This document shows positions 4,671-39,483 of a stretch of DNA of 39,483 nt, piece after piece. This DNA is from an uncultured Pseudomonadota bacterium (lineage in GTDB: Bacteria > Myxococcota_A > UBA796 > SXON01): assembly GCA_903844155.1 (NCBI GenBank), contig CAIMSU010000296.1, positions 1 to 39,483 on the forward strand, in the 5' to 3' direction. The position numbers and the translations under genes are program-made. The notes below the pieces were generated by a model. That model was not told the DNA's origin and made no database searches. It worked only from the letters and a program-made list of their open reading frames with translations. Each line of letters begins with the position of its first letter. The stretch's first letter is position 1.

Positions 4671-5875
<1,205 letters not shown>

Positions 5876-5879
<4 letters not shown>

Positions 5880-8590: not shown

Positions 8591-9481
8591 GTGTTTCCAA
8601 TTCACGCCGAAGCCGCCCGCCTCTTTGCCGACGATCGTGTCGCGCAGGCGGCGATGCTGGCGGCGGTGTCTTCCCCGGAGTTCCAGCGCCTTCGCGACAC
8701 CGCCCAGGCGAACCTGGCGTTGGGGGAGGCCGGCTGCCGGCTATTGACCGACGAGTGGCCCGAGGTCTACAAGGCAGAGAGGACCGGCGTTTTCGGGAAC
8801 GCCGAGGCGTTGGCGGCGTGCCCCGGACTGAACGCCGAGGGTGGGCAGTGGGTCCGGATCGACCGTGGGGGCGGCGTTGGCGTGGCGCTCCAGGTCGCGG
8901 CGGGTCGCGTGAACCTCTCGGTGAGCTGGCTCATGGCGCCGCTCTTGAACCACGGCTCGCCCATGTGGATCCTGGCGTGCGCCTACGAGGGAGACCACCA
9001 GCTCTGTGTGCGGGGCGGCGACCCAGTGCTGGAGATCGACTGGCTCGACGACGGCGCGATGCTTGAGGCCGTACCGGAGGAGCGGAAATTCGCGTATTTC
9101 GGCTTTGATCGCCACCTGCCGGCAGGCCTGCCCGATGGTGTCCGCTGTGGTGCCCTGGGGGTCGGCATCGTCGCCACACCCGCTCGGTACGCCGCGGTCT
9201 GCACTGCCGACGACTACTCCCTGCCCACGAGCGGTGTCGACGTCGCCCGCTCAGACCCCTGGCTCGCGCGCGACCACTTCGTGCGTTGGGCCGGAGGAGT
9301 GCCGACCGGGTGGGCGGTCCTGGCGGTCGATGATCGTGTCGTGCTCCGGAGATGGCGCCCGGCCGGCGTCACCGATCGGCGCACACTGCGGCGGGTGGAG
9401 GGGATCATGTGCGGGACCCCCTACACCTACCTCGACCCGACGTCCGACGGGCCCGACCTGACCAAGCTCCCGGCGCCATGA
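8591..9481 (+). CDS. Hypothetical protein, no family recognised
   Basis: A 296-residue soluble protein with no signal peptide or membrane segment. The first ~60 residues are helical and alanine-rich; the rest looks like a mixed alpha/beta fold with many Trp and Gly (WVRIDRGGGVGVALQV, LSVSWLMAPLLNHG, WAGGVPTGWAVLAVDDRVVL). I can name no motif with a known function. The GTG at 8591 is the only start near the beginning of protein-like sequence; there is no Shine-Dalgarno, but a TAnnnT box six bases upstream would fit a leaderless mRNA. It stands alone: divergent from the envelope operon, convergent with the CNNM genes, with a repeat element upstream and a giant hairpin downstream. Codon use is high-GC like its neighbours. 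Confidence is moderate that it is a gene and nil on function. Confidence 0.7.
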   Translation: MFPIHAEAARLFADDRVAQAAMLAAVSSPEFQRLRDTAQANLALGEAGCRLLTDEWPEVYKAERTGVFGNAEALAACPGLNAEGGQWVRIDRGGGVGVALQVAAGRVNLSVSWLMAPLLNHGSPMWILACAYEGDHQLCVRGGDPVLEIDWLDDGAMLEAVPEERKFAYFGFDRHLPAGLPDGVRCGALGVGIVATPARYAAVCTADDYSLPTSGVDVARSDPWLARDHFVRWAGGVPTGWAVLAVDDRVVLRRWRPAGVTDRRTLRRVEGIMCGTPYTYLDPTSDGPDLTKLPAP

Positions 9482-9579
9482 GCGCGTGGCGGAGAAAGGA
9501 GCGATGGAGGGGAAGACTACGCGTGGTGAGGGCGTGGGGCTTACGCGGCGTTCCATGCGGGATCTGGAGCGGCGGGGGG

Positions 9580-9656
9580 CGCGTACGAAAACGGACGATG
9601 TCAGCTTTTCGCACATTCCGATGTGCGAAAAGTGACGTCGTCCGTTTTCGTATGCG
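9580..9656 (+). repeat. 36-bp near-perfect hairpin with TCCG loop
   Basis: The left arm 9580-9616 pairs with the right arm 9621-9656 around the loop TCCG (9617-9620). I count 36 pairs, one bulged G (9604) and two positions that are G-U wobbles if the plus strand is transcribed but C-A mismatches if the minus strand is. UCCG belongs to the UNCG tetraloop class in plus-strand RNA. The element lies 98 bases after the hypothetical gene and 62 bases before the convergent CNNM gene. There is no T-run after it, so it is not a standard intrinsic terminator. The outer arm recurs at the window end (39460-39483). Confidence 0.85.
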
Positions 9657-9718
9657 ACCCGGTGGGAGCGAGCCGCCCAAAGGACGCTGAAAACCCCGCC
9701 CGCTGTCACGACGTGCGG

Positions 9719-10966
9719 CTACCGCGTGTCCTGCACGCTGACTTCCAGGATCGCCCGTTCGTTCGCCAGGGTCACCGTGAACACGAACGTGCCCCAGGTG
9801 AACCGCTCGCCGACGGCAGGCACGTGGCCGAAGCGGGTGAGCAGGAAACCCGCGAGCGTCTCGTAATCGCCACTTGGCATGACAAACCCAGTTTGCGCCT
9901 GCAGTTGCTCACCCTCCACCCGCCCGCTGGCGATGAACTCGCGCTCGCCGACCTTGCGCACGGAGGGCCGCCGGCGGTCGAATTCGTCGTCGATGTCGCC
10001 AACGATCTCTTCCAGGATGTCTTCGATGGAGATGATGCCGACGGCACCGCCGTACTCGTCGACCGCGACCGCCAACCGCTTGCGTTTTCGGCGGAGATCC
10101 AGGAACAGCTCGTCGACGCGCTTGGTCTCCGGGACGAACACCACCTCCTGCATCACGCTGCTCAGGGGCGATGCCCCGTCTGCGGCGAAGAGCAGGTCGC
10201 TGTGCATCACCATGCCAACGATCCGGTCGATGCGCTTGCGGTAGACCGGCATGCGGGAGAAGCCAGCTTCGACCATGATCACCGCTGCTTCGTCGCACGT
10301 CGCGGTCTCGGGGAGACCGGCCATCTCGATGAGCGGGACCATGGCGTCCTGCACGAGCGTCTCCGAGAAGTGGAAGACGCGGAGGATCATCTCCTTCTCG
10401 TCGGCGTGGATGTCGGTTTTTTCGGCGTTGTTCAGGAGCAATCGGATGTCCTCGCGGCGGACGGTGTGCGGCTCCGTCTCGCCGGCGCCCATCGCGCGCA
10501 TGACGGACCGCGAGAACCACTCGACGGCTGTCAGCGCAGGCGAAAAGAGCACGGAGAACCACCCGAGGACCGGCGCGACGACGGGTGCGACGCGTGTGGC
10601 GTTCGCCCGGTAGATGCTTTTGGGCAACAGCTCAGCGAAGATGATGGTGATGGGCGTGAACAGCGCGACCACCACGATCTGGGGCATGTCGCCGACCTGA
10701 TGGAGCACGTGGGCTGCCACGGTCGAGCCGGCGATGAGCGCGAGGTTCGTGCCGATGAGGCAGGTGCCGACGAGACGGGTGGGGCGAGCGAGCAACGCGA
10801 GGACCCGCGCAGCGCCTGCATCGCCGCCATCGGCCCGATTCTTCAGCACGAGCCGGTCCGAGCTGACGATCGCCAGCTCGGACCCCGAGAAGAACCCCTG
10901 GATCAGCACCAGCAGCGCCACCAGGGCCACTTCGCCGCCCACGCCGCCGAGATCGGGCATGCTCAT
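9719..10966 (-). CDS. CNNM/CBS-pair transporter-like protein (HlyC/CorC family)
   Basis: A 415-residue inner-membrane protein of the HlyC/CorC (CNNM, DUF21) family, linked in characterised members to divalent cation (Mg/Co) export or resistance. The N-terminal CNNM domain (about 1-180) has the diagnostic IQGFFSGSELAIVSSDR and IIFAELLPKSIYR segments and about three to four membrane helices. A CBS pair follows (about 200-330; DAMVPLIEMAGLP, FSRMPVYRKRIDRIVGMVMHSDLL, AVAVDEYGGAVGIISIEDILEEIVGDI). The C-terminal CorC_HlyC domain (about 340-415) ends the chain. It starts inside the stop codon of the upstream paralogue (ATGA at 10963-10966), so the two are probably translated together and may form a heteromer. 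Despite old haemolysin names, nothing here suggests a toxin. Confidence 0.9.
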   Translation of the reverse strand: MSMPDLGGVGGEVALVALLVLIQGFFSGSELAIVSSDRLVLKNRADGGDAGAARVLALLARPTRLVGTCLIGTNLALIAGSTVAAHVLHQVGDMPQIVVVALFTPITIIFAELLPKSIYRANATRVAPVVAPVLGWFSVLFSPALTAVEWFSRSVMRAMGAGETEPHTVRREDIRLLLNNAEKTDIHADEKEMILRVFHFSETLVQDAMVPLIEMAGLPETATCDEAAVIMVEAGFSRMPVYRKRIDRIVGMVMHSDLLFAADGASPLSSVMQEVVFVPETKRVDELFLDLRRKRKRLAVAVDEYGGAVGIISIEDILEEIVGDIDDEFDRRRPSVRKVGEREFIASGRVEGEQLQAQTGFVMPSGDYETLAGFLLTRFGHVPAVGERFTWGTFVFTVTLANERAILEVSVQDTR

Positions 10967-39459: not shown

Positions 39460-39483
39460 CACATATGAAAACCGACGACGTCG
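39460..39483 (+). repeat. Left arm of a second copy of the 9580-9656 hairpin, cut by window end
   Basis: CATATGAAAACCGACGACGTC (spelled here as CATA, T, GAAAAC, C, GACGACGTC) matches the 9580-9656 hairpin arm CATA, C, GAAAAC, G, GACGACGTC at all but two of 21 positions. It begins just after the hydrolase stop codon and runs off the end of the window, so the loop and right arm cannot be seen. Confidence 0.65.

What the first reader, a model, noticed from the sequence alone, without database searches (positions are those of the whole stretch)
9580..9656. Giant hairpin with UNCG-class loop and strand-specific wobble pairs
Seen: 36 paired positions, one bulge, loop TCCG. Both non-Watson-Crick positions are G-U only if the plus strand is RNA (they would be C-A on the other strand), and UCCG is a UNCG tetraloop only in that orientation. 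This suggests selection at the RNA level on the plus strand, downstream of the 8591 gene. It is far longer than an intrinsic terminator and lacks a T-run. It could be a 3'-end stabiliser, a small structured RNA, or a mobile hairpin (REP/MITE-like).
Basis: partly seen in the sequence, partly recalled or inferred. Interest (0 to 1): 0.75.

Follow-up and report, generated by a model that had tools for sequence, protein, structure and literature searches.

The report
Transposase-linked mobile DNA hairpin repeat
The hairpin is one of about 60 copies of a short mobile DNA palindrome that almost certainly belongs to one particular single-strand-DNA transposase elsewhere in the same genome; it is a new member of a known kind of bacterial repeat rather than a new structured RNA.

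Summary
The hairpin at 9580-9656 is real: 36 pairs, one bulge, TCCG loop, two G·U pairs on the plus strand, no shuffle folds as well. It is not a unique RNA. The 8.1 Mb genome holds about 60 copies, mostly pairs of a 21-nt near-palindromic unit (AAAASYGACGNCGTCRSTTTT, preceded by AYVTAYS), nearly all intergenic. The same paired units bracket both ends of one of five RAYT/TIRYT-like Y1 (HUH) transposase genes. Most relatives of that gene (with it, 6 of 8) are bracketed by a private hairpin. The family was not found in 37 relatives, nor its unit pattern in the GTDB collection. So this is a transposase-linked, non-autonomous repeat of the REPIN/TIR kind. The window copy is nested in a second, more abundant repeat (62 exact copies without the insert; 7 carry it at the same place). 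Stem changes are compensated (6 pairs, 0/500 shuffles), but the G·U pairs and bulge are inherited by one 12-copy subfamily whose orientation is independent of gene direction (3 vs 3). Plus-strand RNA selection is therefore not supported. Transposition itself is inferred, not shown.

The parts
9580..9656 (+). The hairpin: 36 pairs, bulge at 9604, loop 9617-9620
   Evidence: fold
9588..9609 (+). Left repeat unit AAAACGGACGATGTCAGCTTTT (one extra base relative to the 21-nt consensus)
   Evidence: catalogue
9628..9648 (-). Right repeat unit, inverted, AAAAGTGACGTCGTCCGTTTT as read on the plus strand
   Evidence: catalogue
9582..9654 (+). 73-nt element shared without gaps by 12 copies in the genome
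   Evidence: alignment A4
9545..9679 (+). Second (outer) repeat split by the hairpin: 51 nt when empty, 135 nt here; similarity extends over about 9528-9699
39465..39483 (+). Truncated further copy of the repeat unit at the end of the window, which appears to be the contig end

Best explanation
The hairpin is a non-autonomous mobile palindrome of the REPIN/TIR kind, linked to the RAYT/TIRYT-like Y1 transposase at G000:C268:23798-24592. SHOWN: about 60 copies in one genome; two-unit architecture; conserved end motif AYVTAYS; paired units at both ends of that transposase gene (the downstream pair starts at its stop codon) and not at its paralogues; mostly intergenic location; compensated stems in the window's subfamily; a nested copy inside a second repeat of which copies without the insert exist. 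INFERRED from IS200/IS605 and TnpA-REP biochemistry: the transposase recognises the folded single strand of the unit, cuts near its TA-containing foot with its tyrosine, and moves or copies the two-unit element into intergenic DNA, so that both arms stay complementary. The window copy belongs to a 12-member 73-nt subfamily, part of which seems to have spread together with the outer repeat in which it sits. Any effect on mRNA 3' ends is secondary.
For: Copies and architecture. Transposase bracketed on both sides by 2+2 units, PF01797 over cut-off and REP-associated tyrosine transposase as best NCBIfam model; HUH histidines and tyrosine invariant in eight relatives. Six of eight related genes, this one included, have hairpins on both sides, each gene with its own sequence. 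Family absent from 37 relatives and its unit pattern from the GTDB contigs. Compensatory changes 0/500. 49 of 52 placeable copies intergenic. Empty and filled outer repeats. Descriptions of REPIN, TIRYT and TnpA-REP in PMC3116915, PMC3733652, PMC8266576.
Against: No movement observed; no orthologous empty site seen (congeners have a different neighbour gene). The NCBIfam match is below its curated cut-off (40 of 80 bits). 14 of 48 two-unit copies score as direct rather than inverted, and both copies next to the transposase fold less perfectly than the window's. Arm-to-own-arm coupling is not visible in the 52-nt class. One cognate gene only, so the link rests on position.
Confidence: 0.85

Rival explanations
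1. RNA element: a 3'-end stabiliser or bidirectional terminator selected as RNA, spread by duplication and kept because it works at gene ends.
For: 22 of 49 intergenic copies lie between convergent genes, more than gaps in general (22/49 against 29/136, p 0.003; the comparison set includes some of the same gaps). Very stable as RNA. Stem changes compensated.
Against: No orientation bias of the G·U strand (3 versus 3). Copies also in tandem (18) and divergent (9) gaps. Units bracket a transposase gene. No Rfam match. No T-run.
Confidence: 0.07
2. The mobile unit is the composite (outer repeat plus hairpin), moved by unrelated machinery, and the transposase link applies only to the shorter copies.
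For: Seven composite copies share the insertion point, and five of them have outer parts more alike than those of copies without the insert (p 0.008).
Against: Members of the same 12-copy subfamily (L013, L015, L019, L020) sit at sites without the outer repeat, so the hairpin is found on its own too.
Confidence: 0.05
3. Retron msd DNA reinserted into the chromosome, as proposed for Nannocystis exedens repeats (Lampson and Rice 1997, known here only from its citation in PMC6868368).
For: The genome holds a retron-like reverse transcriptase at C314 and the repeat is a long hairpin.
Against: No match of the hairpin at either reverse-transcriptase locus beyond 12 bases; the units sit at a transposase instead.
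Confidence: 0.01
4. Classical MITE of a DDE transposase with terminal inverted repeats.
For: Short, palindromic, dispersed, non-coding.
Against: No target-site duplication above permuted flanks; the bracketed gene is a Y1/HUH enzyme.
Confidence: 0.02

Closest known systems
TIRtrons / TIRYT (TIR-associated tyrosine transposases; PMC3733652, TnpA-Y1 subclass 2.1 in PMC6006769)
   Same: RAYT-like gene flanked by inverted, partly self-complementary repeats unrelated to GTAG REPs; several such genes per genome, with different repeats; repeat dispersed as single and paired copies; protein with a long C-terminal part.
   Different: The GGGGWSAS motif common in that set was not seen in the repeats here; HUH context is AH-L/A-H or NHAH rather than NHVH; repeat family not seen outside this genome.
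REPINs (REP doublets forming hairpins; PMC3116915)
   Same: Two inverted units with a spacer folding into one long hairpin, intergenic, linked to a RAYT gene.
   Different: Unit is tagged by AYVTAYS, not GTAG; spacer only 10 or 18-19 nt; about 30% of two-unit copies score as direct repeats; tens, not hundreds, of copies.
REP dimers nested in palindromic targets (GTAG-15 of A. variabilis, GTAG-23 of T. roseum; PMC3733652)
   Same: Dimers regularly inserted within another palindromic repeat; in T. roseum the target also occurs without the insert, in hundreds of copies.
   Different: Here only about 7-9 of 60 copies are nested, and the nested ones look co-amplified.

Membership tests
TIRtron / TIRYT repeat | Y1 transposase gene flanked on both sides by inverted repeats unrelated to GTAG REPs | tested here: met
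   2+2 units around C268 gene
TIRtron / TIRYT repeat | HUH motif and catalytic tyrosine | tested here: met
   H49, H51, Y109 invariant in eight relatives; PF01797 over cut-off. That Y109 is the catalytic one is inferred from the Y-I-H-x-N motif.
TIRtron / TIRYT repeat | C-terminal DnaA-C or HTH-like domain (subclass 2.1) | tested here: inconclusive
   C-terminal extension of roughly 150 residues after the Y motif, no Pfam match there
REP (sensu stricto) | GTAG (or GTGG) tetranucleotide at the foot of the palindrome | tested here: not met
   Foot is AYVTAYS; only TA is near-invariant
REPIN | Unit occurs predominantly as inverted doublets folding into one hairpin | tested here: met
   48 of 60 clusters are doublets, 34 of those inverted; orientation of near-palindromic units is partly ambiguous
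REPIN | Excision or transposition seen in population sequencing | not testable with these tools
   No reads available
Classical MITE | Target-site duplication | tested here: not met
   39 copies, p 0.17 against permuted flanks
Retron msd | Hairpin present in the retron's own msr-msd | tested here: not met
   No match at either reverse-transcriptase locus beyond 12 bases
Known RNA family | Match to an Rfam covariance model | tested here: not met

The most novel reading that the evidence does not exclude
The composite is a co-operative unit: a transposase-linked hairpin has captured a strand-specific repeat that sits just past stop codons, and the pair spreads together as a mobile gene-end module that alters transcript ends where it lands.
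Probability: 0.1. Interest if true: 0.5.

Novelty: new member of a known kind. Interest (0 to 1): 0.32.

Why it matters
Three genomes of this genus carry at least eight related single-strand transposases, most bracketed by a different private hairpin, while 375 or so sampled genomes elsewhere in the phylum have no close homologue. That is a compact natural series for asking how a Y1 transposase and its hairpin co-evolve, in the little-studied TIR-associated class, for which a large survey reported no REP-like repeats (PMC6006769). It also explains several contig breaks in this assembly.

Tried and rejected
RNA selection on the plus strand (orientation 3 versus 3; G·U pairs inherited). Retron origin (no match at the retron locus). 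Classical MITE with target duplication. Pre-existing palindromic target at each site: a copy's own flanks pair no better than permuted flanks, although flanks share a C-rich/G-rich consensus. Known RNA family: none. Plasmid match: none. Naming the organism: both genome-contig scans returned nothing, so the phylum is not stated. Arm-to-own-arm coupling is absent within the 52-nt class (z -0.9) and weak in the 60-62-nt class (z 1.5); it is clear only in the gap-free 12-copy subfamily with per-pair counting.

Full report
OBSERVATION. The hairpin is as described: 36 pairs from C9580-G9656 inwards, bulged G9604, loop TCCG at 9617-9620, two G·U pairs on the plus strand. Free energy as RNA is -59.9 kcal/mol against a shuffled mean of -21.6 (z -11.6); the minus strand gives -51.9; as DNA -40.5 and -36.6. 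It lies between convergent predicted genes 8591-9481(+) and 9719-10966(-), the latter a CNNM/CorC-type protein. The 'window-end arm' at 39465-39483 is a truncated further copy.

COPIES. A nucleotide search of the window's own genome (8.13 Mb, 375 contigs) gave 72 matches at about 40 places. A covariance model built from 24 copies gave 108 matches on both strands at about 60 places. I catalogued 60 clusters: 48 two-unit clusters (34 scored inverted, 14 direct), 11 single units and one triple. The unit is a near-palindrome, AAAASYGACGNCGTCRSTTTT. Two units are usually 10 nt apart (52-nt class) or separated by an 18-19 nt, mostly self-complementary loop (61-nt class). Outside the units the end motif is AYVTAYS, with TA near-invariant (94-96%), then a C-rich stretch at -9 to -12 (56-66% C against 34% further out). 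GTAG is not conserved. The window copy belongs to a 12-member, gap-free 73-nt subfamily. Within it 97.8% of cells are paired and 6 pairs carry changes on both sides, a number reached by 0 of 500 shuffles; slid structures fall to 25-54% paired. Related copies share ancestry, so the shuffle figure is not a probability.

COGNATE TRANSPOSASE. The genome has five RAYT-like Y1 transposase genes. One, at C268:23798-24592, matches PF01797 above its cut-off and the REP-associated tyrosine transposase model at E 2.5e-10, though below that model's curated score. It is bracketed by the window's repeat: two units whose inner edge is about 50 nt upstream of the likely start codon, and two downstream that begin at the stop codon. 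With about 60 copies in 8 Mb this is very unlikely by chance (my estimate, order 1e-6). The paralogues do not carry this repeat. Instead C113:46396, C113:28371 and three genes in two congeners have hairpins of a different sequence on both sides; one gene (C182) shows a hairpin on one side and one (C259) none that I detected. The HUH histidines and a tyrosine in Y-I-H/P-A are invariant in all eight. This clade was found only in this genus among 379 genomes of the phylum at E 1e-20. The repeat family was found in none of 37 relatives, and its unit pattern in none of the GTDB contigs scanned.

NESTING. The window hairpin sits in the middle of another repeat. Without the insert that repeat is 51 nt (GCGGCGTTCC...GAGCGAGCCGCCCA); with it, mostly 135-136 nt. 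The pattern without insert occurs 62 times in this genome, 6 times in one congener and once in one other relative; the reversed control pattern gave none. Seven copies are filled at the same point, one of them with a shortened hairpin. In the five compared, outer parts resemble each other more than those of copies without the insert (94% against 88%, permutation p 0.008), so at least some spread as a composite. Yet hairpins of the same subfamily also occur without the outer repeat (L013, L015, L019, L020). The gene end orthologous to 9719-10966 in four congeners has neither repeat, but its neighbour gene differs too, so this is not a clean empty site.

RNA OR DNA? These and the bulge are common to 11-12 of 12 subfamily members, so they look like one inherited state. 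In the six tandem-gene contexts of that subfamily the G·U strand is sense in three and antisense in three. Copies of the whole family occur in convergent (22), tandem (18) and divergent (9) gaps, and three fall inside called genes (gene calls by a codon-usage script). The convergent excess (p 0.003) is expected if insertions between gene ends are best tolerated, and also if the hairpins help to end transcripts. An RNA effect is possible, but nothing here shows that it maintains the family.

MECHANISM (inferred). By analogy with TnpA-REP, which cuts folded single-stranded REP DNA and needs the foot motif (PMC8266576), the C268 protein probably recognises its unit as folded single strand and mobilises two-unit elements, as proposed for REPINs (PMC3116915). 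I found no target duplication, which fits single-strand transposition. Movement itself is not shown.

PLACE AMONG KNOWN SYSTEMS. The closest is the TIRtron with its TIRYT (PMC3733652): RAYT-like genes flanked by inverted repeats unrelated to GTAG REPs, several per genome, with different repeats. It works like a REPIN and meets its doublet criterion, but is not a GTAG REP. Nesting of dimers in palindromic targets is on record in the same paper. Hence: new member of a known kind.

Noticed in passing
window 9545-9679 and, e.g., L132-L151: Outer repeat GCGGCGTTCC-N(21-26)-...AGCCGCCCA: 62 exact copies without the hairpin, ends conserved, middle variable. In most copies examined its 3' side lies within about 65 nt of the stop codon of a gene on the opposite strand (7 opposite, 1 co-directional among tandem contexts, plus 10 convergent). 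No Rfam match; function unknown.
   Followed up: partly
G000 contig ends C82:1, C192:1 and end, C298:1, C293 end, C294 end, window end 39465-39483: About seven contig ends fall inside copies of this hairpin, against roughly 0.4 expected: the repeat breaks the assembly.
   Followed up: partly
L107:1340-1376 and 2294-2356; L103 around 2290-2320; L066, L072, L129: Private hairpins of the paralogous transposases: GATCTGAGCNGCTCAGATC at C113:28371 (seen only there among held loci) and CTCTCCGCAGTTGTGG at C113:46396, which recurs by chance in three unrelated loci held, so it is probably a further dispersed family.
   Followed up: partly
G000:C314 (L049:412-1992): Retron-like reverse transcriptase of 526 aa with a long insert between its two matched parts.
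   Followed up: no
G000:C62 (L048:910-1929): A second reverse transcriptase (339 aa), best matching a CRISPR-associated/DRT-type set, partner genes not examined.
   Followed up: no
window 4716-5651: About ten copies of a 69-nt in-frame tandem repeat in a predicted minus-strand gene (4671-5879), like calcium-binding thrombospondin type 3 repeats (resemblance from memory).
   Followed up: no
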